A stretch of 64,000 bases of DNA from Oribacterium sp. oral taxon 102 (GTDB lineage Bacteria > Bacillota > Clostridia > Lachnospirales > Lachnospiraceae), in contig NZ_JABXYT010000001.1 of assembly GCF_013394775.1 (NCBI RefSeq), positions 448,501 to 512,500 on the forward strand. Reading direction: 5' to 3'. The translations under genes and the position numbers were made by a program. Numbering within the stretch: the first letter of the stretch is position 1; every line of letters starts with the position of its first letter. Below, one piece after another: positions 1 to 24,569 of this stretch. Below the pieces are notes generated by a model. It was not told the DNA's origin, did no database searches, and saw only the letters and a list, made by a program, of their open reading frames with translations.

Positions 1-1231
1 CCTCAAAGACTTGTTTGTTATCTTTGATGATGTCCGCATAGGTGAAGCATTTATTTAAGCTTTCTATCCTTGCGGTTTTTGCCTTAATGTCTTGACTAAT
101 CTTCTTATTTTTTTCTTGTAATGTACTTATCTTTTCTTGTAGGTCTGCAATGGTCTGCAATTTGTTATCTGATAAATATATCCTTGCTTTTGAAAATCGT
201 CTTAGGTCTGCACCTATCTTTTTGTTGCTTGCATAGGGATTTAACTTTCTTGCTTTTTCTCCCTGTAAGTCATAATAAATACTGATGTACTCATAGAGAT
301 TAAAGAGTTCCGCCTTGTTCTCATATTCTTCTTTTTTCTCCTGTTTGTATTCATCATATTTTACTTGCAGACTTCCAAGTAACGAGCCTATCCAAGATGT
401 AAGTTTGGATAGCTCCTCTTTTAATTTTCTAAATTCTAAATTCAAGGCGATGATTTTTCTGTTTTGGTTTCCTCTTTCTGTCTGTATGCCTTTTTTCTCC
501 ATTTGGTAACTGCTTGTTCCTAAATGGATTTGCGGAAGTTCTTCTCTACCTTGTTCTTCAAAGGTGCGTGGATCTATTCTCTTTTGGATATTGTTCCTTT
601 CCAAATATCCATTTGCTTTCTTTGAAAAGTTTTCTCTCCACTCTTTTGCTTTGTCAGGTTCGTTCCAATCATTCAGATTTACTTTTCTTGATTTGTAGTT
701 TCCACTTTTCAGCTTTATCTTTTCTCCGTTTTCATCAAGGATATATTCTTTTCTGCATTTCGGTTTCCATTTTCCCTCACTATCCATTTCTCTTAAGGTA
801 AGTAAGATATGGGCGTGTGGTTGTTCTTCATGATCGCTTGCCATAGGATTATGAATACTACAGTCTGCTATCATACCTTTAGAGGTAAAGTTTTCGTCTA
901 TAAATTCGCTGATTAACTTTATTCTGTCCTGTTCATTTAATTCTCTTGGCAGTTCAAAGAGTAGATTTCTTGCAAGTTGTGAGTTTTTACTTTTTTCGAT
1001 TTTCTCAACTTCATTCCATAGGTATTCTCTGTTTGAAAACTCTTTCGGGATATGTTCCGGCAGAAATATTTTTGAGAATACAAGGTCTGTTTTTTTAGAA
1101 TAGTCATGTGTTTTTCCATAGTATTCATCTTGTAATTTATCTCTTGCATTGTATGCAGCTTTTGCAATTACGCTTGCTCCTTTTGACCTTGTAACAATAT
1201 CTACATGGGTATGCAAACTTTTGATTTCCAT
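1..1231 (-). CDS. mobA: MobA/MobL family relaxase, 3' end cut by window edge
   Basis: The frame is open from an ATG at 1231 to position 1 (410 codons, no stop), so the protein is incomplete. The N-terminus (MEIKSLHTHVDIVTRSKGAS) and a His triad, H127 with H139-A-H141 in QPHAHILL, fit the HUH nicking domain of MobA/MobL (MobQ-type) relaxases. These cut the element at oriT and pilot the strand to the recipient. The C-terminal half is rich in Lys and Glu and looks coiled-coil. It follows the oriT-like hairpins at 1381-1512 and the DUF3847 gene, the same order as in elements A and B. The sequence is clearly more diverged from the A and B relaxases than those two are from each other. Confidence 0.88.
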   Translation of the reverse strand, partial: MEIKSLHTHVDIVTRSKGASVIAKAAYNARDKLQDEYYGKTHDYSKKTDLVFSKIFLPEHIPKEFSNREYLWNEVEKIEKSKNSQLARNLLFELPRELNEQDRIKLISEFIDENFTSKGMIADCSIHNPMASDHEEQPHAHILLTLREMDSEGKWKPKCRKEYILDENGEKIKLKSGNYKSRKVNLNDWNEPDKAKEWRENFSKKANGYLERNNIQKRIDPRTFEEQGREELPQIHLGTSSYQMEKKGIQTERGNQNRKIIALNLEFRKLKEELSKLTSWIGSLLGSLQVKYDEYKQEKKEEYENKAELFNLYEYISIYYDLQGEKARKLNPYASNKKIGADLRRFSKARIYLSDNKLQTIADLQEKISTLQEKNKKISQDIKAKTARIESLNKCFTYADIIKDNKQVFE

Positions 1232-1276
1232 TGTCTTTCACTCCTTTTGATTTATGATTTTTGTATTTTCGGGCAT

Positions 1277-1320
1277 AAGAAAAGCAGATAGATTTTCTTT
1301 AATAATTTTCCATCTGCTTA
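1277..1320 (-). terminator. Hairpin with T-run upstream of relaxase C
   Basis: Read on the minus strand, AAGCAGAT pairs with ATCTGCTT and is followed by TTTTCTT. It lies about 45 bases upstream of the relaxase start, so it is either a terminator for transcripts coming through oriT or a leader attenuator of the relaxase gene. Confidence 0.5.
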
Positions 1321-1380
1321 TCTTTATCCATTATTTAATTTTCATATTTTAATATCCTGATGTTGAAAGGTATCTTTACT

Positions 1381-1512
1381 CCCTTTTTCAAAGGGCGCAA
1401 AGATACACCGTTTAACTACGGTGCTTTGCGTTCCTGCGGAAAGCTATTAGCTCCGCTAAGGAAACAAAAACGCTAAAGCATTTTTATTTGTTCAAGGGGG
1501 TTACTCCCCCTT
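1381..1512. other. oriT-like hairpin cluster of element C
   Basis: The non-coding gap between the DUF3847 and relaxase genes holds a run of inverted repeats. They are CCCTTT/AAAGGG (1381-1395), a nested stem CGCAAAG...CTTTGCG enclosing CACCG/CGGTG (1396-1430), TTAGC/GCTAA (1447-1459) and AAGGGGG/CCCCCTT (1494-1512). The position matches that of the hairpin arrays in elements A and B. Such clusters next to the relaxase gene are typical of oriT. The nick site cannot be assigned from sequence alone. Confidence 0.55.
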
Positions 1513-1624
1513 AGACCCCTGTGAACTTTGTTTTTTGTAGATTTTTCAAATCCACAAAAAAGCAAAGTGTTAAAATGTTTCTCACTTTGCTCCATCTCAA
1601 TCCCTAATACATTTTCTGTTTTTC

Positions 1625-1999
1625 TTATTCTTCATCTTCCGGTTCTTCAAAATCATCATTTCCGTTTTCTTCTTCAAGATTTGGATTTTCTTCTAAGGAG
1701 ATTTCTTTTTCTCTTAAATGAATTTCTGTAAGTTCTTTTAGCTTTTCTCTATTTCGATTATCAGAAAGTACATAATCTAAAAAGGCATAGATTAAATCAT
1801 TATTTGTTTCTTCCTGCATACCTGTAATTTCTCTTTCAAAGGCTTCAAATACTCCACCTTTTTCTACTTTTCGTTTCGTGTCCGCCTTTCTTTTTAGCTG
1901 TGATTTCTTTTGTCTTAGTTGCTTGATTTTGTTTTCCGCCTGTTCTTTTTTCTTAGTTTCTTTTTCCAACTGGCTCATTACATTTTCTAACTCTTTCAT
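1625..1999 (-). CDS. DUF3847 family mobilization-associated protein
   Basis: A highly charged 124-residue protein. Residues 1-50 (MKELENVMSQLEKE onward) predict a coiled coil with a KIKQLRQKKSQLKRKA core, followed by GGVFEAF and a very acidic tail ending in EEPEDEE. The GGVFE motif and length match the DUF3847 proteins encoded next to MobA/MobL relaxases in mobilizable elements, and elements A and B each encode one. A role as a relaxosome accessory or oriT-binding protein is plausible from location but unproven. The start is the first ATG, with a weak GGAGG-like site just upstream. Confidence 0.75.
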   Translation of the reverse strand: MKELENVMSQLEKETKKKEQAENKIKQLRQKKSQLKRKADTKRKVEKGGVFEAFEREITGMQEETNNDLIYAFLDYVLSDNRNREKLKELTEIHLREKEISLEENPNLEEENGNDDFEEPEDEE

Positions 2000-2085
2000 T
2001 TTTCATTCCTCCGTTTCAATATTGTTGTGTTCCAAACAAAGAAAGGCTAAGCACCTTTCTTTGATACTTAACCTTTCAGCATTTT

Positions 2086-2502
2086 TTAGAATTTATCTTC
2101 TAAAAGTTTTCTTAGTTTTTCTAAAATCTTATCCCTCCTTTTTCCGATTGCTTGATAGCTTACTTTTTCTTTTTTGCTGATTGACCTTAGACTTTCTTCT
2201 CTGTAAAAGATGGCTTCCATTAACTCTCTTTCTTTTTTTGTGAGTGTAGCTAATGCCTTGTTTAATTCTTCAATTTGCATTTTGACTTCTACAATTTTTT
2301 CTAAGTCTATTCTTTCATCTATGATATTGTCTACAAAGTGTCCGTCATAATCCAGTGCTGAAAATAGTATTACATTGTTTTTCCAATCTTTCTTAATAAG
2401 GTATCTTTCATGCTCGGTTATCTTCCAATAGGCTTTATATACTTCTTCACTTACCTTAACCGCTTTGCCTTTGACATAAAGGAAATATTCTTTTTTGTCC
2501 AT
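2086..2502 (-). CDS. Sigma-70 region 4-like protein of the mobile element
   Basis: A 138-residue protein starting MDKKEYFLYVKGKAV. The C-terminal 60 residues (LTKKERELMEAIF through SYQAIGKRRDKIL) look like a sigma-70 region 4 helix-turn-helix. The N-terminal part resembles the short sigma-like proteins found in many Firmicute transposons. No region 2 is evident, so it is probably not a complete sigma factor. It lies directly upstream of the DUF3847 and relaxase genes and may control mobilization gene expression. A strong terminator at 2549-2590 separates it from the MATE operon, so it needs its own promoter. Confidence 0.65.
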   Translation of the reverse strand: MDKKEYFLYVKGKAVKVSEEVYKAYWKITEHERYLIKKDWKNNVILFSALDYDGHFVDNIIDERIDLEKIVEVKMQIEELNKALATLTKKERELMEAIFYREESLRSISKKEKVSYQAIGKRRDKILEKLRKLLEDKF

Positions 2503-2548
2503 TGTGTAATCCTCCTTTTTCTGCTCTCTGTTTTTGCTTTTTGAGAAT

Positions 2549-2590
2549 AAAAAAAGGAGGACTTCTACACTTTGGCGTAAATAGTCCTCC
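2549..2590 (-). terminator. Rho-independent terminator, strong
   Basis: On the minus strand, GGAGGACT and AGTCCTCC form an 8-bp perfect stem followed by TTTTTTT. It ends the TetR-ECF-MATE operon transcript or attenuates the sigma-like gene 47 bases downstream. Confidence 0.75.
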
Positions 2591-2647
2591 GAATTGAAAA
2601 GAGTTTACCTTTTCTTTAGATGTATTTAATTGTTTGAGAGAATAGAC

Positions 2648-2732
2648 AACTATAAGGCAAATAGAAATTTTTATTATTTATTTCTTTTGTATATAAAGAT
2701 TTTTTCATCTTAATCACCCATCCCTTATAGTT
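2648..2732. repeat. 10-bp inverted repeat AACTATAAGG / CCTTATAGTT
   Basis: Perfect 10-bp arms at 2648-2657 and 2723-2732 flank about 65 bases of very AT-rich non-coding sequence just downstream of the MATE gene. It could be a cargo boundary scar or a long weak hairpin. Function unknown. Confidence 0.35.
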
Positions 2733-2787
2733 AAATAATGTTCATACATCAAACCTTTCTCATTTTTTCTTTTGTCTTTTGAGCTAC

Positions 2788-4143
2788 CTAACTTTTTGTA
2801 ATTTGCTGTTTTCCCATTTTCCTAAGTTCATTAAGCATTAAAAACAGCCCAAACATAATCATACTAAAGTCTACGATAGGTTCTGTCCACCAAACTGCTG
2901 ACGCTCCAAATGCCTTTGGAAATAATAATATTGCAGGAATAAATAAAACTAACTGTCTAAACATTACAATCATACCTGCTTTTTTCCCATCTCCTATGGA
3001 TTGGAAAAATGTGAGTGTCATAATCATAATTCCATATAAGATGAATGTAGAATAAAACATCTTAAAATTTACAACACCAACTTCAATAATCTCCCTTCTT
3101 ACACTGAATAATGATAGTAATTTTTCTGAACAAAACATTGATGGTATCCATGAAGCTGCTGCAAGAATTGTTGCACCATACATAAAAATCTTCATCGTAT
3201 CTTTTACTCTTCCGTATTGTTTCGCTCCGAAATTAGCTCCAATAACAGGTTGTAACCCTTGACTCATCCCCCACAATGGAATAAAGGAAAACATATATAA
3301 TCTCATTGTAGCAGACATCAAAATTCCCCAATCATCTCCTCCATACGCAAAGGCTTGCTTAAACAAAAATGTTTGCTGTACTGCAAATAAAATTTGCATC
3401 ATCATTGCCGAACTTCCTATACTGAACATTTCGCTATAAATTGCCTTGTATTTTTGAATTTTATGGATACCCACAAAAGCACTTTTCTTTGAAAAATAAC
3501 TGAAAGTCAATATAGCTTGTACAATTTGAGATATAACAGTGGCAATAGCCGCACCTTCAATCGCATATTCTCCCATTAACTTCATAAAAATAGGGTCTAA
3601 AATGATATTTAATATAGCTCCTGCTCCCATAATCTTCATAGATTGCTTTAATGCACCTTCACCACGCATTGTCATATTGCCGGCTTGAGCAAAATTCACA
3701 AATATTGAGCCGAAGAAAACTACTCTTAAATATCTCACACCAAGTTCTTTAATATTTCCTTTAGCTCCTACCAAATCTAAAAAATGAGGTGCAAAAACTA
3801 AACCCAATATTGTAATAATTACAGAGAAAAATATTACCCAGTAACAAAAATTCCCGAATATTTTATCTGTTGTTTCTTTGTCCCCTTTTCCAATCGCTCT
3901 TGATAGTATTGAGGCACTGCCGACTCCTATCAATGCCGATATTCCTCCATTTATAATCGTTAAGGACATAGATACACTAATTGCTGACATAGCATAATCA
4001 CCAATCAACCATCCTGCAAATATTCCATCCATAAATGGATACAACCCTATAACAATCATTCCAATTATTCCGGGAATTGCCAACTTAAATAACAGTTCTT
4101 TAGGACTTTTGGTTAATAGTTGTGTTTTCATATCTTCTTTCAT
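2788..4143 (-). CDS. MATE family multidrug efflux transporter
   Basis: A 451-residue membrane protein with about twelve hydrophobic segments. Two halves of similar layout are visible: LFKLAIPGIIGMIVIGLYPF near residue 15, and the second half beginning near FSIGSSAMMMQIL. The NilDpiFM-type motif (ILNIILDPIFMKL) is typical of MATE exporters, which extrude cationic drugs using a Na+ or H+ gradient. The start ATG has AAGGAG nine bases upstream. It is the last gene of the TetR-S component-EcfT-ATPase operon, 24 bases after the ATPase gene, so it is probably induced with the ECF genes. The substrate cannot be read from sequence. Confidence 0.88.
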   Translation of the reverse strand: MKEDMKTQLLTKSPKELLFKLAIPGIIGMIVIGLYPFMDGIFAGWLIGDYAMSAISVSMSLTIINGGISALIGVGSASILSRAIGKGDKETTDKIFGNFCYWVIFFSVIITILGLVFAPHFLDLVGAKGNIKELGVRYLRVVFFGSIFVNFAQAGNMTMRGEGALKQSMKIMGAGAILNIILDPIFMKLMGEYAIEGAAIATVISQIVQAILTFSYFSKKSAFVGIHKIQKYKAIYSEMFSIGSSAMMMQILFAVQQTFLFKQAFAYGGDDWGILMSATMRLYMFSFIPLWGMSQGLQPVIGANFGAKQYGRVKDTMKIFMYGATILAAASWIPSMFCSEKLLSLFSVRREIIEVGVVNFKMFYSTFILYGIMIMTLTFFQSIGDGKKAGMIVMFRQLVLFIPAILLFPKAFGASAVWWTEPIVDFSMIMFGLFLMLNELRKMGKQQITKS

Positions 4144-4167
4144 TGTATCATTCTCCTTTACCTACAT

Positions 4168-5562
4168 TTATTTCATAAACTCATATACTTTTCCGTTACA
4201 TCTATCTATAAATTCATAATCGTGTGTGATTATGATAATTATCTTTCCTTGTTCGGTCATTTTATTAAGAAATCCAATCAAAATATCCATCTGCCTTTTA
4301 CATAGTCCGCTTGTCGGTTCATCGAAAATTATGATAGGCTTCTTGCTTAGCATTGACATAGCAAGTAATAATCGTTGTTTTTCACCTCCCGATAATGAGT
4401 TTGGGTGCATTTCTTTTTTATCAAATAAGTTTACTGTTCTCAAAATTTCATTTTTTAATTCATTCTCCTTAGTAATAGTTGAAATTTCTTGCCATACAGA
4501 CTCTGTAAAAAGTTGATAATTAACATCTTGCATAATCGCAAAAATATTGTCACATTGTTTTTTTACTTTTACTCCGTTATAAAAAACCTCACCTGTTCCT
4601 CTCGTCAGTCCCATCAGTAAATTGATAAAAGTGCTTTTCCCAACACCATTTTGACCAATGATGAAATTGATACCGGATTCAAAGGCAATACTGAAATCAA
4701 AGATTGCGGTTCTTTCATGTTTTTTTTTGAAATTCAAACAAGATAATGCTTTATAATCAAGATTTAAAGAGTTTTTCTTTAACAATTCTACTTGTTCATA
4801 TTTCCTGTTTGAAAATTTGTTTTTAGAAATTGCATTAAAACTCCTTAGATTGTGTTTTTCAGAAACCTGTTCAAAGAAATCATCACAAAAATGCTCTTTT
4901 GTATATTCTTTATAAGTTCCATTTTCTATCACACACAACTTATCAATCGTATCTTTCAGATAAAACAATCTATGCTCCACAATGACGATAATTTTCTTTC
5001 TTTTTTTCAGTTCCTCAATGGCTTTCTGTAAATGCTCTATTGCAGCCTGATCTAAAGAAGAAGAGGGTTCATCCAATAAGATAATTTCATTTTCAGAAAT
5101 TCCACAAGCCGTTACTGCAATCAATTGTTTTTCGCCTCCGGATAATTCAAAAATATTTCTGTCCAATAATTCTTTTGTACCTAAAACCTCTGAATAATAC
5201 CTAATTTTATCTAAAATCAAATTCTTATCTATGTTTCTATTTTCTAACTGAAAAGCCAGTTCATCGGTTGAATTGATACAATAAAATTGTGTTTTAGGAT
5301 TTTGAAACACTGTGGATATAAATTTAGATCGTTCCAATATCGTCAAGCCAAACAGTGATTTTCCGTTAAATACAATATCTCCTTCTAATTCTGCATTATT
5401 GTATTCCGGAATAATTCCATTGATAACTTTTAGTAAGCTACTTTTTCCTGTTCCTGAATGTCCTGTAATGACGGTTACTTCACCGGGTTTGAAAATCATA
5501 TTTATATTTTTCAATATGCTTTCGCCGTCAAAACTCACTGTTAAATTTTGTAATTCAAGCAT
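4168..5562 (-). CDS. Two-domain ECF-type ABC ATPase
   Basis: 464 residues with two complete ABC domains in one chain. Domain 1 has Walker A GHSGTGKSS (about residues 34-42), signature LSGGEKQ and Walker B IILLDEPSSSLD. Domain 2 has Walker A GQNGVGKST, signature LSGGEKQRLLLA and Walker B IIIFDEPTSGL. This is the fused EcfA1/EcfA2 arrangement that powers energy-coupling-factor transporters. It overlaps the preceding ecfT-like gene by 8 bp, which indicates translational coupling. With the T component and the S component upstream it forms a complete ECF module. Transport direction and substrate are not known. Confidence 0.88.
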   Translation of the reverse strand: MLELQNLTVSFDGESILKNINMIFKPGEVTVITGHSGTGKSSLLKVINGIIPEYNNAELEGDIVFNGKSLFGLTILERSKFISTVFQNPKTQFYCINSTDELAFQLENRNIDKNLILDKIRYYSEVLGTKELLDRNIFELSGGEKQLIAVTACGISENEIILLDEPSSSLDQAAIEHLQKAIEELKKRKKIIVIVEHRLFYLKDTIDKLCVIENGTYKEYTKEHFCDDFFEQVSEKHNLRSFNAISKNKFSNRKYEQVELLKKNSLNLDYKALSCLNFKKKHERTAIFDFSIAFESGINFIIGQNGVGKSTFINLLMGLTRGTGEVFYNGVKVKKQCDNIFAIMQDVNYQLFTESVWQEISTITKENELKNEILRTVNLFDKKEMHPNSLSGGEKQRLLLAMSMLSKKPIIIFDEPTSGLCKRQMDILIGFLNKMTEQGKIIIIITHDYEFIDRCNGKVYEFMK

Positions 5563-6256
5563 ATTTCCCCCTTATATACAGATAGATTATCCATACCATT
5601 ATTGAGAAAAATATATAATCCATAAGTCCCATATATGTTTCACTAATACTTGTCCTCTTTTGATTTACAGCCAACCCTTTCGTCATAGCTGATACCGTCA
5701 AATCATCTGCTGCTTTTGACAAGCACATCAATAATGGCACAAATCTATATTCAAATAATAAAATTGGACTCTTTATTAACTTTTTAAGCGTCAATCCTCT
5801 CAAACGCATAGCTTTTTTTATATGACTATAATCAATCCTTGCTGCATAAAAGAAACGTACCATTACCGTCAAGGGAATGGCTATTTCATCAGGACATTTC
5901 ATTTTTTTTAATGAGTAAATGCTTTCTCCAACATTTGATGTAAGTATGGTATATCTCCCCATCAAAAATGCAGGAAGAATTTTTTTAATAACCATTACTA
6001 TTATCAATAAAATTGCAACCATAGGATTGTAATTAAGCCCTATCAGAAATTTATCAGCAGCATAAACAAACAAAAGAGTAGCCACTCCAATAATAGCTAC
6101 TCTTGTATATTTTGCGTGAATTAAAAGTATTATCGGAATTGTGGATATTAAAATGGCTTGCACGAAATACTTTGTTTGAATATTGCCTAATACCATCACA
6201 TATGAAAGAACTATCGTCATAAAAAGTTTTGTACGAAAATCAAGTTTGATTATCAT
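5555..6256 (-). CDS. ECF transporter transmembrane T component
   Basis: A 233-residue membrane protein with four to five hydrophobic segments in the N-terminal half. A basic coupling region follows, containing AMRLRGLTLKKL, which corresponds to the EcfT coupling-helix motif built on small-Arg-Gly. EcfT bridges the ATPases and the substrate-binding S component. It lies 19 bases downstream of the S component gene and overlaps the ATPase gene. Confidence 0.85.
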   Translation of the reverse strand: MIIKLDFRTKLFMTIVLSYVMVLGNIQTKYFVQAILISTIPIILLIHAKYTRVAIIGVATLLFVYAADKFLIGLNYNPMVAILLIIVMVIKKILPAFLMGRYTILTSNVGESIYSLKKMKCPDEIAIPLTVMVRFFYAARIDYSHIKKAMRLRGLTLKKLIKSPILLFEYRFVPLLMCLSKAADDLTVSAMTKGLAVNQKRTSISETYMGLMDYIFFSIMVWIIYLYIRGKYA

Positions 6257-6275
6257 CCTAACTCTCCATGAAATC

Positions 6276-6863
6276 TTATTTTTCCATACCGGCTTTTTTG
6301 AAGTGTTTTTTTAGAAATGCCATTCCAATGCTGCAACCTATATATGCACCGATAATTCCTACTATTGCCATTACAACAATAATCCAATTCGGCATAACAC
6401 TAAGCATCTTATCAATGAACTCTTGATTGTATCCTTGTTCTAACATTTGCTTAATATATTCATTTCTCGATATAAAAATTGGAAGCCAATTTCCTAACGT
6501 GCAAAGAGGAGTAATTGAAAATGCTAATCTTGCTTTCTTTACATTGGTATATTCTCCTGATTTCAAAATTATTTCAGCAATAATACCGGCAATAACAGCA
6601 GTTAATAATGCCCAAGGTCCATGTCCCATAGCAACATATATCAATGCAATCAATAATGATTGAATAAAAATCATTCCTCTTTTTTTAATTTTGGTAGAAT
6701 ATAGCATATTTACAGGTCCTACCAAAACTCCCTGTGCAAATGGGACAACCGGCATTAAAACCGGAACCATTGCTAAAAATGATCCAATCATCATAAATAT
6801 GAATCCTAATACGGAAAATAATCCTATATTGATTAAATCCTTTACCTCTAATCGTTTGCTCAT
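6276..6863 (-). CDS. MptD-family putative ECF S component
   Basis: A 195-residue membrane protein with about six hydrophobic segments, beginning MSKRLEVKDLINIGLFSVLG. The KDLINIG...FIMMI opening and overall size match the Trep_Strep/MptD S-component group, which has no firmly assigned ligand. It is the first transporter gene after the TetR regulator (20-base gap) and should set the substrate specificity of the ECF module. Confidence 0.78.
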   Translation of the reverse strand: MSKRLEVKDLINIGLFSVLGFIFMMIGSFLAMVPVLMPVVPFAQGVLVGPVNMLYSTKIKKRGMIFIQSLLIALIYVAMGHGPWALLTAVIAGIIAEIILKSGEYTNVKKARLAFSITPLCTLGNWLPIFISRNEYIKQMLEQGYNQEFIDKMLSVMPNWIIVVMAIVGIIGAYIGCSIGMAFLKKHFKKAGMEK

Positions 6864-6882
6864 TTGAAACCTCCTAATTGTT

Positions 6883-7476: not shown

Positions 7477-7505
7477 GCTAAAGACCTCTTTTCTACTCAA
7501 CAAAT

Positions 7506-7531
7506 AAAAACCGACAATGTCGTCGGTTTTT
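7506..7531. promoter_or_regulatory. Perfect palindrome at the TetR transcription start
   Basis: Ten-base arms AAAAACCGAC and GTCGGTTTTT flank a 6-base loop, immediately downstream of the -10 box. It could be a second TetR operator or a bidirectional terminator between the recombinase gene and this operon. The T-rich flank supports the terminator reading and the location supports the operator reading. Confidence 0.55.
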
Positions 7532-7568: not shown

Positions 7569-7574
7569 TGTATA

Positions 7575-16307: not shown

Positions 16308-16370
16308 GTAAGCGTTTTGTCAAGTACCTTTTTTGATTTATTGACGCTTTTCTTTTTAATTTTAAGCAAA

Positions 16371-16403: not shown

Positions 16404-16433
16404 CTCATAATCATAGATATTTAATTCCGTTAG

Positions 16434-17312: not shown

Positions 17313-17330
17313 TTTACTATCCTATTCCGG

Positions 17331-17873
17331 CTATTTTGATTTACAATTTTTCTGATGAGCTTTTAACTTTTTCATAGCCCAATCATAATGACTTGATGTT
17401 GTACTTACAAAATAGGAACCAAGCGTACTACCTACTGTCCACTTATAGACACCTTTAGAAAACAATTCTTCACTTGTAAATTTTTCAGCTAATGCTAATA
17501 CATCACTATGGGATTTATGAAACATATCCGTAGCGTCTTCAAGAGAAGTATTTTGATGTTTCTTCCAAAATTCTACATTCATATCTCCATAAGTTTTCCA
17601 GTTATATGGTTCAGGCAAAAACATTTTTTCTTCTCCCTTTTGATTGGAATGTACCCAATTCAAAATAAGCTGATGCCATTCATAGAGATGGATTAAAACA
17701 TCTCTTAAGTTTTTATCTCTTTTCCAATGAGCTTCTTTTTTCTTTTCATCTTTTGAAAAATCAAACGGTGTGTTTAACTCTTCCTCTGTCATCTTTGAAA
17801 TAAGTAAATTTAACTTTTCATAGTTTTCCTTAGCAGCAGTCATCAAATCACTTTTTGTCGTTGGTCTTGGCAT
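17331..17873 (-). CDS. ClbS/DfsB family four-helix bundle protein
   Basis: 180 residues, MPRPTTKSDLMTAAKENYEK at the start, with LRDVLIHLYEWHQLILNW and SSHYDWAMKKLKAH later. This is the DUF1706 pattern of ClbS and DfsB, DinB-like bundles. ClbS hydrolyses the cyclopropane warhead of colibactin and so protects DNA in its producers. Family members elsewhere have unknown substrates. It lies between the zinc-ribbon gene (6-base gap) and the radical SAM gene (18-base gap). Protection against a genotoxin is a reasonable guess, not shown. Confidence 0.82.
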   Translation of the reverse strand: MPRPTTKSDLMTAAKENYEKLNLLISKMTEEELNTPFDFSKDEKKKEAHWKRDKNLRDVLIHLYEWHQLILNWVHSNQKGEEKMFLPEPYNWKTYGDMNVEFWKKHQNTSLEDATDMFHKSHSDVLALAEKFTSEELFSKGVYKWTVGSTLGSYFVSTTSSHYDWAMKKLKAHQKNCKSK

Positions 17874-17879
17874 AACATT

Positions 17880-18143
17880 TTACTCCTTCCATCTTTTTAG
17901 AGTGGGGAAAAACTCCATCATCATTTTTCTTGCACTATCTTCATTCATATCTTTATTAGCTTCGACTACATGAGGAACACATATCTCAATCATTTCCTCC
18001 ATTGTTCCTTTAAAAGTAAATTCGCCTTTCTCAAAGCAGTACTTACAATAATCTTCATTTACACTCTCATCTGAATTTGTACCATAAAGCTCTGTTCCCT
18101 CTCCCATAGGCATAGCACAACACTGACAATACTTCATATCCAT
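17880..18143 (-). CDS. Small zinc-ribbon protein
   Basis: 87 residues with cysteines at 6, 8 and 9 (KYCQCCAMPM) and at 33 and 36 (DYCKYCFEKG), the arrangement of the putative zinc-ribbon family annotated in many Firmicutes. The C-terminus is helical (ARKMMMEFFPTLKRW). It is the first gene after the predicted operator, and AGGAGG lies upstream of its start. Its function is unknown. The context suggests it works with the ClbS-like and radical SAM proteins. Confidence 0.75.
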   Translation of the reverse strand: MDMKYCQCCAMPMGEGTELYGTNSDESVNEDYCKYCFEKGEFTFKGTMEEMIEICVPHVVEANKDMNEDSARKMMMEFFPTLKRWKE

Positions 18144-18174
18144 TGTTTATTCCTCCTTATCTTTATTTAAGATA

Positions 18175-18209
18175 ATTATACCTCAATATACTTGACACCA
18201 TTTGTCAAG
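18175..18209 (-). promoter_or_regulatory. Predicted WYL operator and -10 box of the zinc-ribbon/ClbS/radical SAM operon
   Basis: The perfect inverted repeat CTTGACA-CCATT-TGTCAAG (18191-18209) is followed on the minus strand, 12 bases on, by TATAAT (18175-18180). There is no separate -35 box at 17 bases. The repeat also contains the stop codon of the WYL gene. A matching repeat lies upstream of the WYL gene itself. Confidence 0.7.
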
Positions 18210-19104
18210 TTATATATTTTTCTGCCATTTTATTTATCATTTCTTTAATCTGCATTCGTATCTCTTTTGGCTCTAATACTTCTGCTCCATCTCCGAAAGA
18301 AAAAATATAATTGTATAAGTTGTAATCATTTGGAACTTCTATTTCAGTATATAAATTTCCGTCACTATCTTCTATAATTTCTCCGTTTAACTCATCATAT
18401 ACCCTGAAGGCAACTTTACGATCAAACTTGACTTTTATATGCACTGTATTCTCGTATGGCATTTCTTTTTTGAGTATTGTATCTTCAAAGCTGTCATTAA
18501 ATTTTTCAGTATGGATGTCTAAATTCTTTATCCGGGACAATTTGAAATATCTAAAATCATTTCTAAGTAAACAGAAAGCATATAGATACCAATCCTGACT
18601 CTTGAAAAGTAATCTCACAGGCTTAACTCTCCTGCTTGTTTCTTTTTCATTACTGCTAAAATATGTGAATGAAACAATGTTCTTACTTAAAATTGCGGAC
18701 TTAATATCATTAAATGTTTTTTCATACATCTTATTGTTTTGCCAATTATTAAAATCAACTTCTATCCAACTGGTATTTTTCATTTTAAAGAGTGCGGACA
18801 GTTTTGTTAAAAGCTCATTCTCATGCTGTATTGCGGTATTATCCAATCCTTGAAGGGCTGACATAATCTGTTGTTTCTCGTTTTCAGACAGTAGTGATTT
18901 ACTAAGCACAAAATCTTCAGCAATTTCTATTCCACCACCCTTTCCTTGCAACGCATAGATGGGAATACCTGCACTGCTGATAGAGTCAATATCTCGATAT
19001 ATTGTCCTGACTGACACCTCAAATTTATCTGCAAGTTCACTTGCCGTAACTTTTCCCTTTTCTAAAATATAATATAGTATCCTAAATAGCCTATTATCTT
19101 TCAT
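18205..19104 (-). CDS. WYL-domain transcriptional regulator (YafY type)
   Basis: 299 residues. The N-terminal winged helix-turn-helix (MKDNRLFRILYYILEKGKVT, then FEVSVRTIYRDIDSISSAG) is of the HTH_11 type. The WYL domain comes around residues 140-220, including SQDWYLYAFCLLRNDFRYFK, with a C-terminal WCX extension after it. WYL domains sense nucleic acids or other ligands, and several such regulators respond to DNA damage. I start at ATG 19104, with AGGAGA ten bases upstream, instead of the in-frame codon at 19149 that overlaps the promoter. Inverted repeats occur at its own promoter and at that of the operon downstream, so it should control both. Confidence 0.85.
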   Translation of the reverse strand: MKDNRLFRILYYILEKGKVTASELADKFEVSVRTIYRDIDSISSAGIPIYALQGKGGGIEIAEDFVLSKSLLSENEKQQIMSALQGLDNTAIQHENELLTKLSALFKMKNTSWIEVDFNNWQNNKMYEKTFNDIKSAILSKNIVSFTYFSSNEKETSRRVKPVRLLFKSQDWYLYAFCLLRNDFRYFKLSRIKNLDIHTEKFNDSFEDTILKKEMPYENTVHIKVKFDRKVAFRVYDELNGEIIEDSDGNLYTEIEVPNDYNLYNYIFSFGDGAEVLEPKEIRMQIKEMINKMAEKYIT

Positions 19105-19126
19105 CGTTTTAACATCTCCTATAATT

Positions 19127-19158
19127 ATTATACCACAATAACTTGACATATGTTGTCA
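19127..19158 (-). promoter_or_regulatory. Predicted WYL operator and -10 box of the WYL gene
   Basis: TGACA-TATGT-TGTCA (19144-19158) is followed on the minus strand, 11 bases on, by TATAAT (19127-19132). The arrangement copies the site at 18175-18209, including GTCAAGT before the spacer. No good -35 box is present, so the regulator could be an activator or the repeat could occupy the -35 position. Confidence 0.65.
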
Positions 19159-19308
19159 TATTATTAAATATTTTTCCAAATCATGGTAGTACTACTTATC
19201 TCTCTTATTCACTGTTATAAAAATAGTCAAAGTTCATTCTTCCGTCTCGCTAAAATTAAATTTATTTCACCCAATATTATTATTGTTAGATTTATATTTT
19301 ACTAAGTT

Positions 19309-20769
19309 TTACAACCCTAACTCTTGCTTCTTTACCTGTGTTAATCCTCTCTTTTCTTGCAGTAATTTATCTATACAGCTTCTAACACTTTCAGCTTGTT
19401 CAACCTTTTTTCGTATATCTATCATTTGAGAATATAGAGTATCTTTTTCTTTCCTCAAAGTACCTATTTCTGATTTCCATTTGGATATATTTAGGGTCTT
19501 GTTTTCTCCTAAATGCTCTTTCAGATATTTTTTGGCACTTTCAAATAAAATAATCTCTGCTGTATGTTCATTGTAGAAAGTATCTTGTTTGTTTTTCTTT
19601 AGCTTGGTATAGGCTGTATAGGTATCTTTATGCTTCAAATATTTTTCGGCATGGTCGATAAGTTGTACTCTATCATCTATTTTCTTTTCGGTATCTTTTA
19701 TAGCTCTTGTGGTCTTATAGTTCTTATCTCTTAAAATAACTATACTTTCTTTCAGTTCAGATACGGAAGTGATATTTTTCTCTTTTAAGAATTGATAGCT
19801 TTCGATGTATTGTTCTAAATCTGTATTATGGTTATCTGCATTTTTACGGATAAGATTTTCAAAAACGGATAGCAAATTTTCTTTGGGTGGGAGAGTGGAT
19901 TTGAGATTATCAGTTTCTGCTTTTTCTTCTTTTCCTATTCCTCTTATCCAATTCAGCAAAGCTTTTATTCTTCTTGCAATTTCTTTTAGTATCTTGTTTT
20001 GATGTTTGATTTCTCGGTTGATATTTCCTCTATCAGTGGCTATGCCTTTCTTTTCCATTTGACTTGCTGATACTCCTAAATGAATGGTCGGTATTTGCTC
20101 TATATCCTGTCTTTGATAGGAACGATGGTCTACTTTGTCTTGTATGCTGTTTTCTTCCAAATATTTATTTGTAATATCTGCCCATGCTTTTCGCCACTCT
20201 TCTGCTTTTTCTTGCTCATTCCAATCTACTGTATCTATTTTTCTTGTTTTGTAATTTCCATTTTTAAGTTTTATTTTCTCGCCATTTTTATCAAAGATAT
20301 ATTCCTTTTTTGATTTTGCTCCCCATGTTTTATCTTCATTTAACGGTCGCATGGTAAGTAGGATATGTGCGTGTGGGTTTCCGTCATTTTTATCGTGTAT
20401 AGCAATGTCTGCACACATACCGACATCTACAAAATTTTCTTTCACATAGTTCCTTACAAGTTCAATCTGTTTTTCCCTGTCTAATTCTTTAGGCAATGCA
20501 ATTTCTATTTCTCTTGCAAGCTGTGAGTTTTTACTTTTTTCTATTTTCTCGACACTGTTCCATAAGACAGAACGGTTTGCAAATTCCTGTGGTGCATTTT
20601 GTGGTAATAGAATTTCAGTATGGGCTATTCCACCTTTTCTTGTAAAGTCGTGGACTATGCCGTCATATTCATTTTTTATCTTTTCGCCACTTCGATAGGC
20701 GGAAGCTGCAACTGCACTCTTGCCTTTGCCTCTTGAGATAATTTTGATACTGAGATGATATATCGCCAT
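19309..20769 (-). CDS. mobA: MobA/MobL relaxase of element A
   Basis: 486 residues, with the nicking domain and His triad in the same positions as in element B (H125, H133, H135). It differs from the B protein at scattered sites, with most changes in the C-terminal 40 residues (EKRGLTQVKKQELGL at the end). The start has AGGAGGTG upstream on the minus strand. It is the mobilization protein for element A and probably recognizes the same oriT as the B relaxase, because the two oriT regions are almost identical. The 150 bases between this gene and the WYL promoter hold no gene. Confidence 0.92.
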   Translation of the reverse strand: MAIYHLSIKIISRGKGKSAVAASAYRSGEKIKNEYDGIVHDFTRKGGIAHTEILLPQNAPQEFANRSVLWNSVEKIEKSKNSQLAREIEIALPKELDREKQIELVRNYVKENFVDVGMCADIAIHDKNDGNPHAHILLTMRPLNEDKTWGAKSKKEYIFDKNGEKIKLKNGNYKTRKIDTVDWNEQEKAEEWRKAWADITNKYLEENSIQDKVDHRSYQRQDIEQIPTIHLGVSASQMEKKGIATDRGNINREIKHQNKILKEIARRIKALLNWIRGIGKEEKAETDNLKSTLPPKENLLSVFENLIRKNADNHNTDLEQYIESYQFLKEKNITSVSELKESIVILRDKNYKTTRAIKDTEKKIDDRVQLIDHAEKYLKHKDTYTAYTKLKKNKQDTFYNEHTAEIILFESAKKYLKEHLGENKTLNISKWKSEIGTLRKEKDTLYSQMIDIRKKVEQAESVRSCIDKLLQEKRGLTQVKKQELGL

Positions 20770-20821
20770 AAGGGAACACCTCCTTTCGTTTCTCTGATAC
20801 TTTGGTGTGGCGATGAATAAG

Positions 20822-20870
20822 ACTTCCTAAAAAAATCGGATAGCTTTTTATCCGATTTCTTTTGGGAAGT
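20822..20870 (-). promoter_or_regulatory. Long hairpin with T-run in the relaxase leader, element A
   Basis: The outer arms ACTTCC/GGAAGT and inner stem AAATCGGAT/ATCCGATTT are the counterpart of the hairpin at 12893-12940. The outer stem keeps pairing by a double change, which supports a selected structure. Confidence 0.65.
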
Positions 20871-21009
20871 ACACAAGGGGTAGGAAATTTATTTCCGTAG
20901 GGGAGTGTAGCTCCCCTGTATCAGCGTTAGCTGATATGCTCTCTGCAAGAGCCTTCGGAGAACGCACACACCCTTTAGGGTGTATAAGTGCGCCCTTGTA
21001 AACAAGGGA
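20871..21009. other. oriT-like array of hairpins, element A
   Basis: The same six-hairpin series as at 12941-13079, with a difference seen in one loop (TATCAGC-GTTA-GCTGATA in place of CTTA... in the same stem). The near-identity of this non-coding block in two elements with different integrases marks it as functional, most likely oriT. Confidence 0.7.
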
Positions 21010-21330
21010 CTATTCCTCTGTGTCTGTTTCTTCCTCTTGGTTTTCTGTATTTTGATTTTCGCTTTGTTCTCGCTTCTCAATAATTTTTAGGATTTTTTGA
21101 TTGACTGCTTCTTTGATGTTTGGGAATGTGATTAGCTGATAGAATTCATCTTTGGTAAAATCCTTGCTTTCGATAAATATACTTTCAAAGACTCCTCCTT
21201 TTTCATAAAGCCGTCTATCCCTCTTTTTTCTCTCTTCCTGTTTCTGCTGACTGATGAGCTTTTTTCTTTTATTTTGTAACTGCTTGATTTCTTCTTCTGC
21301 CATTAAAATTTTTTCATCTATATTTTTCAT
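21010..21330 (-). CDS. DUF3847 family protein, element A
   Basis: 106 residues with the coiled coil MAEEEIKQLQNKRKKLISQQ, the basic patch ERKKRDRRLYEKG, the motif GGVFESIF and an acidic tail. Most residues are the same as in the element B protein; differences cluster in the last 30 residues. It lies directly upstream of the oriT array and is probably part of the mobilization apparatus. Confidence 0.78.
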   Translation of the reverse strand: MKNIDEKILMAEEEIKQLQNKRKKLISQQKQEERKKRDRRLYEKGGVFESIFIESKDFTKDEFYQLITFPNIKEAVNQKILKIIEKREQSENQNTENQEEETDTEE

Positions 21331-21363
21331 TTTTCCTGTCCTTTCTTTCTAATTTTGAGCAAT

Positions 21364-21395
21364 AAAAAACAGTAAACCGATTTGATTTACTGTTT
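21364..21395 (-). terminator. Terminator-like hairpin upstream of DUF3847 A
   Basis: AAACAGTAAA and TTTACTGTTT arms followed by TTTTTTATTGCTC on the minus strand, the counterpart of 13434-13466. Confidence 0.7.
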
Positions 21396-21453
21396 TGTGA
21401 ACTGCTATGTTACAGCTTGTATTTAGTTGTTTAAGTTAGATAAAAACTGGGAT

Positions 21454-21939
21454 TTACTGATTTTCAATCATCAATTCTTTGCATTTCCATTCTTCTCCCA
21501 AAATATAATATGTTTCTGTCTTATCAAAAATTACATCATCAAAACCAACTGCCTTGTAACAGAAATATGCAGATTCATTGTTTTCAAAAACACTTAATGA
21601 AACCTTTTTTGTACCATAAATTTCAAATGCAAACTTTAAGCCTAACTGAAGCATTTTCTTGCCATATCCTTTGCCACGCTTTGAAGGGGCAATAATTACA
21701 AAACCAAACCTCAACTCATCAAAGCTTTTTGAAGGTCTTCTCATTGTAAAAAAACCTACTATCTTATCATCTTCAATAGCTGTAAAAGCCATTAGATTAT
21801 TAACAAACCCAAACTTCTCTTTTGTTATCGGATATTTGCCCAAAACACCTGCTGACCATTTATAAAAATCTATTTCATCTTTAATCCAAGAAAGAATTAT
21901 ATCTGCATCGTTTATATTATAAGGCTTTAATCTCAACAT
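21454..21939 (-). CDS. GNAT family N-acetyltransferase
   Basis: 161 residues. The acetyl-CoA binding motif A is APSKRGKGYGKKMLQ (R/QxxGxG/A), with the following helix LGLKFAFEIYG and the NNESAYFCYKAVGF segment typical of GNAT enzymes. It begins MLRLKPYNINDADIILSWI. The acceptor could be a small molecule or a protein N-terminus and cannot be told from sequence. It is a cargo gene between the recombinase/TnpW block and the mobilization module of element A, with about 165 non-coding bases on its 5' side. Confidence 0.88.
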   Translation of the reverse strand: MLRLKPYNINDADIILSWIKDEIDFYKWSAGVLGKYPITKEKFGFVNNLMAFTAIEDDKIVGFFTMRRPSKSFDELRFGFVIIAPSKRGKGYGKKMLQLGLKFAFEIYGTKKVSLSVFENNESAYFCYKAVGFDDVIFDKTETYYILGEEWKCKELMIENQ

Positions 21940-22106
21940 TATTATTTACCTTCACAATTTCAAATTTTTTCTATAAATCATCTGAAAATATTATACCATT
22001 TTCAATGGCTTTTTTCCACTGTCAGATTTCCTACTTGCCCTCAGGAATTCATCAAGACATACAGAAAAATAATAGAAAAGATAGATACAAAAATTATCTT
22101 TTTCCT

Positions 22107-22289
22107 TTATTCTTTCCGTTCCGCTTGCACTATCTTTAACAGCTTATCTTGAAAGGTATCCTTGCTCTCTTTATCAAAATATATCTCGCTTACAAAGGTC
22201 TTTCCTCTAATCTTTTTTATTAAAATGCCATCAGGTTTTCGGGACATGACTCGTTCACCTTTAGTCTGTGCTTCTTGTTTTTCTGTCAT
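22107..22289 (-). CDS. TnpW-like small transposon protein
   Basis: 60 residues. The core MSRKPDGILIKKIRGKTF, followed by DTFQDKLLKIV, matches TnpW, the small protein encoded near TnpX-type serine recombinases. The ATG at 22289 has GGAGG six bases upstream. It lies directly downstream of the element A recombinase gene. Element B has its relative at the opposite end of the element. Confidence 0.75.
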   Translation of the reverse strand: MTEKQEAQTKGERVMSRKPDGILIKKIRGKTFVSEIYFDKESKDTFQDKLLKIVQAERKE

Positions 22290-22313
22290 TCAATTCCTCC
22301 TTTTTACTTGCAC

Positions 22314-22343
22314 AAAAAAAGATTTCCTGTAATCTAGGAAACC
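22314..22343 (-). terminator. Terminator between recombinase A and tnpW A
   Basis: TTTCCT and AGGAAA arms with TTTTTTT after them on the minus strand. It lies about 25 bases before the tnpW start. Confidence 0.6.
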
Positions 22344-22370
22344 TCTTTTCATTTTGATTGATATTTAATT

Positions 22371-24209
22371 TTAGGTTACCGCTTGTAGCTTCTTTCTTGC
22401 CCTGTATTCTCGTGCTTTTATCCGTTCATACTCTCTGAATTTTTCAATATTTTTAGATCGGTATTCTTTGGAATATGCCCTGTGATATGCTCTTGTTTTT
22501 TCTTTCTTGGCTTCTTCGATTTCTTCCCTCATCTGTATCATTTCTTGTTCTGTCGGCTCTATCTCTTTTGTAAGTTCATTTTCAAATTTTCCGATATAAT
22601 TGAAATAGACTTCAATACGCTGAACGGCATATTTTGCTCTTTTGACATCTCGTTCATGTACTACAATTTTACTGATAAATTCATTGATGGCGGTGGGGGT
22701 AAGTTCTTCAAAATCTGAGTAGCTTTCTGCCAGTTTGATAAAGTTCTTTGCTCTTTGGTTGGCGTTTTCAAATTCGGATAAGCGTTCCTCTATTTGCTCC
22801 TGTTCTGCTTTTAAGCTGTAATATTCTTCTGCATATTTCCCCGATAATTGCTCATAACGCTTCGGCTCAATATTTCCCAGTGCATTATCCTCATACAGCT
22901 TATTCATAACTCTTTCTATCTGTTCCATTCTGTCTGTGATTTGTGGTATACGTTTTTTCTGTTTTTTGATTTCTTCCGTCTGTTCTTTGGCAAGACTGCT
23001 TTTTACCAGTGCTTCAAATTCTTCTTTATTTGCCAATGAATACTGTGCTATCTTTCGCAAAACCTCTGTGAGATTTTCCATCACATCATCGACATCAATA
23101 CGGTGGGGAGAATGGCATTTCGGGTGTTTGGATTTTCCTTTGGCATATTCGCTGCAATAGGTTACATGTTGCACTTTTCCGCTTTTGTGTATGGTACGGA
23201 TGTGCATTTTTGTACCGCAATCTTTACAGTACATCAGTCCGGATAAAGCGTGGATTTCTCCATCTCCGTTTGGTCTTTTTACAGGTGCGTTTTTTAATAT
23301 CCGTTGTACATTTTCATAAGTAGCTCGATCTATGATTGGCTCATGCACATTTTTGATTACCTGCCACTTATCTTTATCTACATAGTGGTTTCGTTTGTCT
23401 TTGTAATGCTTTTCGGTCTTGAAGTTGACTACATCGCCACAATACTCCTGCCTTTTCAGTATGTGTGTTAGGGTTGCTTTGTTCCAGTTATAACGGTTTT
23501 CTTCATTCAGCTTTCTGTTTTTCGCCGTTCCTCTGTCTTGCTGTTTCATATAAAAGGTTGGGGTTAGTATTTCTTTCTCTTTCAAGTAAACGGCTATCTG
23601 ATTTCTGTTTTTTCCATCCATAAACAGTCTAAAAATGAGTTTTACGACTTCGGCAGCTTCTTTATCGACTATCCAAAAATCTTTGTTATCAGGGTCTTTT
23701 ATATAGCCGTAGGGGGCTTCTGTTGCAACTGGCTTTCCGCTTGCTCCTTTGGTCTTAATGCCTGTTGTTACTTTCTTGCTGATGTCTCTTGCATACCACT
23801 CTGACATGATATTGATAAATGGGGCAAATTCCAATGTATTTTGGTCTTTACTGTCGATACCGTTATTGATGGCAATAAACCGTACATTATTTCTTCTAAA
23901 TATTTCCATAGCGTTTCCTACTTGAAGATAATCTCGTCCCCACCTTGTCATATCTTTCATAATGACAATGCCGATTTTTCCGCTTTCTACATCACTTATC
24001 ATCTGTGTATAGGCGGAACGGTCAAAGAACCTGCCGCTTTCATCATCATCAATATAGTGGCGAATGTTCATCAATTTGTTCTGTCTTGCATATCTCTCTA
24101 AAAATGCCTTTTGATTTACAATACTGTTGCTTTCGCCACCGTCCCTGTCCTCATCACCAACTGAAAGGCGGGAGTATAGCGCAGTGATTTTGGTTGCATA
24201 TTCTATCAT
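22371..24209 (-). CDS. Large serine recombinase of element A
   Basis: 612 residues. The catalytic domain starts ITALYSRLSVGDED with the nucleophile at about S16. The recombinase domain, a zinc ribbon (YCKDCGTKM, then YCSEYAKG) and a coiled coil of about 100 residues follow, then a basic tail rich in Tyr and Arg (RAYHRAYSKEYRSKN). It integrates and excises element A at the CCCA core in traG. GGAGG lies 8 bases before the ATG, and the start is about 60 bases from the right junction. It is closer in layout to recombinase C than to B. Confidence 0.93.
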   Translation of the reverse strand: MIEYATKITALYSRLSVGDEDRDGGESNSIVNQKAFLERYARQNKLMNIRHYIDDDESGRFFDRSAYTQMISDVESGKIGIVIMKDMTRWGRDYLQVGNAMEIFRRNNVRFIAINNGIDSKDQNTLEFAPFINIMSEWYARDISKKVTTGIKTKGASGKPVATEAPYGYIKDPDNKDFWIVDKEAAEVVKLIFRLFMDGKNRNQIAVYLKEKEILTPTFYMKQQDRGTAKNRKLNEENRYNWNKATLTHILKRQEYCGDVVNFKTEKHYKDKRNHYVDKDKWQVIKNVHEPIIDRATYENVQRILKNAPVKRPNGDGEIHALSGLMYCKDCGTKMHIRTIHKSGKVQHVTYCSEYAKGKSKHPKCHSPHRIDVDDVMENLTEVLRKIAQYSLANKEEFEALVKSSLAKEQTEEIKKQKKRIPQITDRMEQIERVMNKLYEDNALGNIEPKRYEQLSGKYAEEYYSLKAEQEQIEERLSEFENANQRAKNFIKLAESYSDFEELTPTAINEFISKIVVHERDVKRAKYAVQRIEVYFNYIGKFENELTKEIEPTEQEMIQMREEIEEAKKEKTRAYHRAYSKEYRSKNIEKFREYERIKAREYRARKKLQAVT

Positions 24210-24268
24210 GGCGTTATCCTCCTTTTTCCATGTCTATATATCACTCCTGTTCAGTTAATATTATGCAA

Positions 24269-24569
24269 CCCATCGGGCGGAACCGTATTCCTGGTTGTGC
24301 TTGAAGTGCTTGGCATTCTTATGACGGATATAGACAGCAAGGTACAGAGCACCACCGCAGATGACACCGACCAGAAGATCTGCTGGATGGAAACTCGGGA
24401 GAGGATTTCCGAAAGCCGTTCCCAGAGTGCTGAAGAACGACAGCAGCTTCTTACTGGCATCAGCGCCTTCGGCCAGCCGCCAGGCCTCGCCCAGATTGGT
24501 ACAGACGAGGCCCACCAGCACATACGGCAGAGCTTTGATGATGATCTTTTTCAGCTTCTTCGTATTCAT
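24269..24569 (-). pseudogene. traG: traG/virD4 fragment 1 (N-terminal membrane segment)
   Basis: The N-terminus begins MNTKKLKKIIIKALPYVLVG with a first membrane segment. A second (LLVGVICGGALYLAVYI) follows, then KNAKHFKHNQEYGSARW, where element A interrupts and adds VA and a stop. Two N-terminal membrane spans followed by the EYGSARW motif are typical of TraG/VirD4 coupling proteins in Tn1549-like ICEs. The gene start overlaps the end of pcfB by four bases (ATGA). It would deliver relaxosomes to the type IV channel if the three insertions were excised. Confidence 0.93.

What the first reader, a model, noticed from the sequence alone, without database searches (positions are those of the whole stretch)
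1..24569. One coupling-protein gene (traG) interrupted by three different mobilizable elements
TraG fragments at 24269-24569, 16078-16307 and 9521-9954 are consecutive pieces of one protein. Elements A, B and C lie in the gaps, all in the same orientation with the serine recombinase next to the 5' side of the gene. Shared bases CCCA (A) and CCTTT (B) at the two ends allow exact reconstruction of SARW-GTHADIEP and DPKG-SILVEC. The three insertion points are separate, conserved stretches of the coupling protein (EYGSARW, VVTDPKG, KLAAG). Integrative mobilizable elements need a helper's coupling protein, so three of them targeting this gene at three sites is striking. It would silence the helper and make TraG function depend on excision of all three.
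Basis: partly seen in the sequence, partly recalled or inferred. Interest (0 to 1): 0.85.

Follow-up and report, generated by a model that had tools for sequence, protein, structure and literature searches.

The report
One transfer gene, three parasitic insertions
In one bacterial genome, a gene that a mobile DNA element needs to move between cells is cut into four pieces by three smaller hitchhiking elements, each with its own enzyme for its own seat in the gene, and the same pile-up is seen in other bacteria.

Summary
Four coding pieces (three in the window, the fourth about 2.8 kb left of it) tile one 584-residue VirD4/TraG coupling protein without gap or internal stop. Three IME-like elements (A 8.0, B 6.1, C 12.3 kb) fill the gaps, all in traG orientation. 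Each carries a large serine recombinase just 3' of the break, a MobA/MobL relaxase and a DUF3847-type protein. The recombinases share 39-46% identity and each family has its own seat: A after W101, B in K176, C after A318. Stacking recurs: of 21 traG genes with a close B relative and readable at both other seats, 19 are broken again and 5 are broken at all three. TraG DNA of six stacks differs by 8-35%, while B recombinase genes stay 91-93% identical to ours, so stacks were assembled more than once. One or two IMEs in one traG was already published; eight searches found no three-seat stack. Most likely each element excises by its own recombinase and TraG needs all three to leave; circularisation would assemble a recombinase promoter (strong for A and our C, at chance level by score for B). 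Excision was not shown.

The parts
24269..24569 (-). traG piece f1 (TraG residues 1-101), ends at ...EYGSARW
16308..24268 (-). Element A (about 8.0 kb), in seat 1; coding-strand core TGGG at 24272-24269 and 16307-16304
22371..24209 (-). large serine recombinase of A (612 aa)
   Evidence: Pfam Resolvase, Recombinase, Zn_ribbon_recom, DUF4368
21454..21939 (-). GNAT acetyltransferase, cargo of A
   Evidence: below the cut-off of each NCBIfam model listed
21010..21330 (-). DUF3847 protein of A
19309..20769 (-). MobA/MobL relaxase of A
   Evidence: 88% aa to that of B
16434..19149 (-). cargo of A: WYL/HTH regulator, zinc ribbon, DUF1706, radical SAM
16078..16307 (-). traG piece f2 (residues 101-176; contains GSGSGKT), ends in VVTDPK
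9955..16077 (-). Element B (6.1 kb), in seat 2; core AAAGG at 16082-16078 and 9954-9950
14352..16022 (-). large serine recombinase of B (556 aa)
   Evidence: relatives in 78 loci
13532..14308 (-). alpha/beta hydrolase, cargo of B
13080..13400 (-). DUF3847 protein of B
11382..12842 (-). MobA/MobL (MobQ) relaxase of B
   Evidence: NCBIfam MobQ over cut-off
10271..11344 (-). cargo of B: SnoaL-like and SAP_new25 proteins
9521..9954 (-). traG piece f3 (residues 176-318), ends at KLAAG
1..9520 (-). Element C in seat 3 (window part; whole element about C1:445716-458020, 12.3 kb); core CAGG at 9524-9521 and C1:445712-445715
   Evidence: one search used an end 12 bases off
7575..9482 (-). large serine recombinase of C
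2788..7503 (-). cargo of C: TetR regulator, Trep_Strep membrane protein, CbiQ-like, double ABC ATPase, MATE transporter
   Evidence: three of the five (TetR, ABC, MATE) also in NCBIfam, under the cut-off of each model listed
1625..2502 (-). DUF3847-like and sigma-70 region 4 proteins of C
   Evidence: both under the Pfam cut-off
1..1231 (-). 5' part of the C relaxase MobA/MobL (whole ORF L006 8091-9731)
24566..25060 (-). DUF3801 gene directly upstream of traG, host ICE (PcfB-like: recalled label)
29503..29527 (+). putative right end of the host ICE: 25-bp repeat, 92% to C1:402169-402193
   Evidence: two tyrosine integrases at the far end

Best explanation
A host ICE (MobP relaxase, VirB4, VirD4/TraG) carries three IMEs nested side by side inside traG. 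SHOWN: each IME has its own large serine recombinase, and relatives of that recombinase mostly sit at the same codon of TraG in other genomes: seat 1 after W101, seat 2 in K176, seat 3 after A318. The seats are conserved protein motifs, the elements lie in traG orientation with the recombinase next to the 5' piece, the pieces are all open, and triple stacks were assembled more than once. INFERRED: each recombinase integrates and excises its element at a few shared bases without loss of traG sequence, so TraG is made only after all three have left. In the integrated state the recombinase has no good -35 box and would be transcribed mainly from the tra operon, so tra expression would trigger excision. 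In the excised circle a TTGACA from the far end and a -10 box from the near end come together 17 bp apart in front of the recombinase, favouring reintegration in the recipient. The freed IMEs use the restored machinery with their own relaxases.
For: Tiling without gap. Seat specificity: 56 of 78 recB relatives sit directly 3' of TraG residue 176; of places with a locus, 9 of 11 distinct recA relatives (71% or more, ours included) follow residue 101-103 and 13 of 19 distinct recC relatives (58% or more, ours included) follow residue 319, the alignment running on to 333 in two. Of 19 distinct places fetched with longer flanks, 13 show TraG on both sides of the element. Every TraG match beside a recombinase has its strand. 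Spread independent of traG: own against Suipraeoptans recA 91.7% and recB 91.9% nt but traG f3 65%; element C about 95% over 12 kb to G008 while traG f3 is 67%. Off-target copies of B at AAAGG-like cores in unrelated sequence. Joint promoter: A 11 of 12 in 6 of 6 distinct joints, C 9-11 in 6, attL mean 7.1 over 31; 12 of 14 distinct -10 hexamers are TANNNT against 1.7% background (one anchoring error removed; rows are related).
Against: No excised form was seen: joint patterns of A and B were absent from viral contigs, A's in 0 of 299 family genomes, B's in the own genome; C's was not searched, and assemblies seldom hold such forms. For B the joint score (9-10 of 12) is no better than right ends set before random 40-mers (9 or more in 59.5%). 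Two B left ends reach 9 and one B right end 11 in the integrated state. 22 of 78 recB, 2 of 11 recA and 6 of 19 recC relatives have no TraG next to them, some at contig ends. Terminator-like hairpins lie between the recombinases (13 found, 13.0 in shuffles), which would weaken read-through to the later ones.
Confidence: 0.72

Rival explanations
1. Graveyard (shares the structural part of the best explanation, denies the function): the ICE no longer transfers, traG is free of selection, and IMEs pile up in it because losing it costs the cell nothing; the stack is a dead end.
For: No one-piece TraG of this type among the matches in the genome, and a second copy is also truncated at seat 3 beside a recombinase in two frames. 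Disruption is cheap for the host cell (argument of PMC5357655 section 25).
Against: All four pieces are open and together cover the protein; the MobP relaxase, VirB4, NlpC/P60 and topoisomerase ORFs of the ICE are of full-looking length. The pile-up hits three fixed codons, not random places. Recent spread of the elements needs working helpers somewhere.
Confidence: 0.35
2. Inherited composite: the stack was built once and travels with the ICE as one unit.
For: Further breaks accompany close B relatives far more often than distant ones (19 of 21 against 3 of 14).
Against: TraG f3 DNA of the stacked loci differs by 8-35% while B recombinase genes are 91-93% identical to ours; single and double states exist with the same elements.
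Confidence: 0.1
3. Assembly or annotation artefact: pieces of different traG genes joined wrongly.
For: None found.
Against: Gap-free tiling, shared bases at each junction, and the same architecture in other assemblies.
Confidence: 0.02

Closest known systems
Tn6104 and Tn6105 in ORF 1743 of Tn6103, C. difficile R20291 (PMC3158075, passages; traG as target of Tn6104 from the table in PMC5704250)
   Same: Mobilizable elements with large serine recombinases inside an ICE; two insertions in one ORF and a third, in ORF 1776; excision of Tn6104 shown by PCR; authors suggest the insertions may explain failed transfer.
   Different: Two, not three, in one gene; no mapping of recombinase family to seat in the passages seen; excision of Tn6105 and Tn6106 not detected.
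IME_Sco1050_traG_site1 and _site2, Streptococcus constellatus C1050 (PMC5704250 table; PMC5357655 sections 14 and 25)
   Same: Serine-recombinase IMEs at two internal sites of traG of Tn5252-superfamily ICEs; hypothesis of excision on induction of conjugation.
   Different: Two sites; I could not check whether they are the same codons as here or one gene copy, as figures and supplements were not seen.
IMEs in Tn1549_traG of Streptococcus suis (PMC7168690, passages)
   Same: IME inside the coupling-protein gene of a Tn1549-related ICE.
   Different: No stack described in the passages seen.
Tn4451/Tn4453 with TnpX (Lyras and Rood 2000: title seen as reference 38 of PMC13023037; content recalled)
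   Same: Large serine recombinase; TnpW (Pfam hit in C); circle joint that makes a recombinase promoter.
   Different: Tn4451 is listed with numerous GA sites (PMC5704250 table); the families here mostly use fixed seats in traG.

Membership tests
Integrative and mobilizable element (IME) | own integrase | tested here: met
   serine recombinase in A, B, C
Integrative and mobilizable element (IME) | own relaxase, no mating-pore genes | tested here: met
   MobA/MobL in each; no T4SS family among the ORFs scanned inside A, B and C; small ORFs not all scanned
Integrative and mobilizable element (IME) | short direct repeats at the ends, precise insertion | tested here: met
   TGGG, AAAGG, CAGG; TraG residues continuous across each break
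Integrative and mobilizable element (IME) | excision and transfer with a helper | not testable with these tools
   needs culture; circle joints of A and B not found in the assemblies searched
Tn5252/Tn1549-type ICE (host element) | VirD4 coupling protein of the CD1115 family, MobP relaxase, VirB4 | tested here: met
   NF045973 matches to the pieces, PF03432 and PF19044
Tn5252/Tn1549-type ICE (host element) | ends and integrase defined | tested here: inconclusive
   25-bp imperfect repeat and two tyrosine integrases; no empty site compared
Tn4451/TnpX-type regulation | circle joint creates a promoter for the recombinase | tested here: inconclusive
   A and our C strong, B at chance by score; transcription not tested

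The most novel reading that the evidence does not exclude
TraG is a three-seat gate. Three recombinase families have each evolved a separate seat in the same helper gene, and all place their recombinase as the next cistron of the tra operon. Tra transcription would then release the elements in turn, first A, then B, then C, and only a full release would rebuild the coupling protein; each circle would then switch on its own recombinase promoter to retake its seat in the recipient's ICE. Stacked hitchhikers would thus gate the helper's transfer to the moment when all of them are free to ride.
Probability: 0.22. Interest if true: 0.85.

Novelty: new variant of a known kind. Interest (0 to 1): 0.56.

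Why it matters
Why an IME should break the gene it depends on is an open puzzle, stated for traG in PMC5357655 section 25. A recurrent stack of three seat-specific families in one coupling-protein gene turns that puzzle into a test: either transcription-coupled release of all three rebuilds TraG, or such ICEs are immobile harbours. It also gives three families of large serine recombinases with natural target sites at conserved codons.

Tried and rejected
Assembly artefact: rejected. One inherited stack: rejected as the sole account. Circle joints in databases: absent, taken as uninformative; C's joint was not searched. Plasmid relatives of host DNA, to name the host: none. Simple promoter score as proof for B: rejected, not above the random control. 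Rows dropped: of 55 B rows, 38 have both ends; one of these (L068), whose right end fell on another TraG copy, was left out, leaving 37 plus our own B. One A row (L184) has no left end. In some searches one C joint (L196) was wrongly anchored; re-anchored it and there it is a duplicate of another C joint. Of the 22 recB loci without TraG at seat 2, 20 were examined. Literature: eight searches gave no three-seat traG stack; the library lacks most subscription papers.
Full report
What is there. The window is C1:448501-512500 of a 2.5-Mb genome in two contigs. Left of about 24 kb the G+C falls from about 47-62% to about 29-41%, and on the minus strand runs a series of coding blocks. TraG pieces lie at 24269-24569, 16078-16307 and 9521-9954. 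A fourth lies outside the window at C1:444916-445715. Compared one by one with an intact TraG from the same genus (L091, 584 aa), they cover residues 1-101, 101-176, 176-318 and 315-583 at 57-84% identity. None has an internal stop.

The three elements. A (16308-24268), B (9955-16077) and C (about C1:445716-458020, window part 1-9520) each begin, next to the 5' piece of traG and on its strand, with a large serine recombinase of four Pfam domains. Each carries a MobA/MobL relaxase and a DUF3847 protein (for C under the cut-off). C ends with a TnpW gene. The recombinases share 39-46% identity, whereas A and B share a 2.1-kb relaxase module at 87% nt, so the integration and mobilization modules have separate histories. 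Cargo differs: GNAT, WYL regulator and radical SAM in A; hydrolase, SnoaL and SAP in B; TetR, ECF-like transporter genes, MATE and a YhcG-type nuclease in C. Of 20 sequences compared with NCBIfam (two of them with only the best 25 families shown), no resistance model listed reached its cut-off; the MATE protein fell below each one listed for it.

Host element. Around the stack are DUF3801, Maff2, VirB4, NlpC/P60, topoisomerase, ArdC-like and MobP relaxase genes, a type I-like restriction-modification set and two tyrosine integrases. A 25-bp imperfect repeat at window 29503-29527 and C1:402169-402193 may mark its ends, next to a ribosomal L13 gene and a 130-aa ORF that I take, unscanned, for rpsI. 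The element would then span about 76 kb.

Seat specificity. In 56 of 78 the recombinase lies directly 3' of TraG residue 176, 55-109 bases from it in the 55 loci measured. The other 22 include contig ends and off-target sites; among the 20 examined, the readable ones of high identity have AAAGG-like cores in unrelated sequence, for instance in Schaalia suimastitidis and Pasteurella bettyae. For A, 9 of 11 distinct relatives of at least 71% identity follow residue 101-103; for C, 13 of 19 of at least 58% follow residue 319, the alignment running on to 333 in two (our own copies included, only places given a locus counted). Of 19 distinct places fetched with longer flanks, 13 show TraG on both sides of the element. 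The seats fall in strongly conserved stretches: residues E95, G97, S98 and G102; D174-G177; and G319-T321 are invariant in 12 intact TraG.

Stacking recurs. Among the 28 loci with a close B recombinase (90% or more) in seat 2, seats 1 and 3 were both readable in 21: both open 2, only seat 3 broken 10, only seat 1 broken 4, both broken 5. For more distant B relatives (14 readable of 28) the counts are 11, 2, 1 and 0. Any further break is thus 19 of 21 against 3 of 14, Fisher P 5e-5 (rows are not independent). A break was called from loss of the reading frame across the seat; in 9 of the 10 seat-3-only loci and in 5 of 5 triples a recC-like recombinase follows. Triples with all three recombinases seen are this genome, Suipraeoptans intestinalis (L027, L178/L179), Peptoniphilus gorbachii (L034) and Urinicoccus massiliensis (L041); in Anaerococcus degeneri (L068) and an Ezakiella MAG (L075) seat 1 is inferred from the A-type right end only. 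In an evenly drawn family sample of 60 genomes and the 17 genomes of the genus, my hand tally of the listed rows gives 25 one-piece genes of this type, about 14 broken at seat positions and about 9 split elsewhere by gaps of about 2.5-2.7 kb (rough, because contig ends also cut genes).

Independent assembly. TraG f3 DNA of the six stacks differs by 8-35% between pairs (the pair own/L041 gave no alignment), while their B recombinase genes are 91-93% identical to ours. The B recombinase and relaxase genes are 98.3% and 99.6% identical to those in Mogibacterium timidum (L010), and C is about 95% identical over 12 kb to the copy in G008, whose traG f3 is only 67% identical.

Mechanism. The right ends of the three families carry TTGAC(A/G/T) and the left ends a -10-like hexamer; joined as in a circle, the best pair lies 17 bp apart (16 in one B joint) in the 31 distinct joints. 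Scores are 11 of 12 for A (6 of 6), 9-10 for B (19) and 9-11 for C (6); integrated left ends average 7.1 (two B ones reach 9), integrated right ends 8.3 (one B one reaches 11), empty traG 6.8. A right end before random 40-mers reaches 9 in 59.5%, 10 in 18.1% and 11 in 2.4%, so A and our C stand out and B does not by score alone. At the fixed distance 12 of 14 distinct hexamers have the form TANNNT, against 1.7% background (L196 corrected), though the rows are related. The arrangement is that named in the title of Lyras and Rood 2000 for Tn4451 (seen only as a reference in PMC13023037). Since the integrated recombinase has a poor -35 and stands as the next gene after the 5' traG piece, its transcription would depend on the tra operon. 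This agrees with the proposal in PMC5357655 section 25 that induction of conjugation triggers excision. These steps are inferred.

Against. No circle joint of A or B was found; C's was not searched. The genome shows no one-piece coupling protein of this type: its second copy ends at seat 3 beside a recombinase in two frames. So the graveyard reading stays open.

Known and new. Papers seen: PMC3158075 (passages) describes two insertions in ORF 1743 of Tn6103 and excision of Tn6104; PMC5704250 (passages) lists traG as target of Tn6104 and of two IMEs at two sites; PMC5357655 (passages and sections 14, 25); PMC7168690 (passages); PMC6907783, PMC11389934 and PMC13214566 (passages) gave nothing on stacks in traG. 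Eight searches gave no three-seat stack. I therefore file single elements as IMEs and the recurrent, seat-specific triple stack as a new variant of a known kind.

Noticed in passing
L008 6431-9585 (C1:621431-624585): A second, diverged traG in the same genome ends near the seat 3 motif (KVAAG) and is followed by a recC-like serine recombinase spread over two frames.
   Followed up: partly
L188 1382-4789 (G270:C19): A 1135-aa open frame fuses an A-type serine recombinase, sitting in traG seat 1, to the ATPase part of another VirD4 coupling protein. It may be a deletion fusion or an element that brings its own coupling protein.
   Followed up: partly
G114:C1, G031:C58, G111:C3 and others: TraG genes split at model positions near 160, 208 and 458 by gaps of about 2.5-2.7 kb, five copies at 160 in G114; the size suggests group II introns, not checked.
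   Followed up: no
L020, L026: Near-identical B recombinases (96%) in records named Pasteurella bettyae and Schaalia suimastitidis, outside Bacillota by name and away from traG; contamination not excluded.
   Followed up: partly
window 50076-50748: Four Clostridiales-1 RNAs (RF01699) of about 167 bases each, head to tail.
   Followed up: no
window 21366-21396 and 13437-13467: Nearly identical hairpins (CAGTAAATC...GGTTTACTG) just upstream of DUF3847 in A and B; terminator or oriT-like, not tested.
   Followed up: no
L006 2511-4861: Two near-identical Maff2-like ORFs in the host ICE (one scanned; the other alike by eye) with two small genes between them, one weakly GNAT-like.
   Followed up: no
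window 7532-7560: Perfect sigma-70 consensus (TTGACA, 17 bp, TATAAT) on the minus strand in front of the TetR, ECF-like and MATE genes of element C.
   Followed up: no
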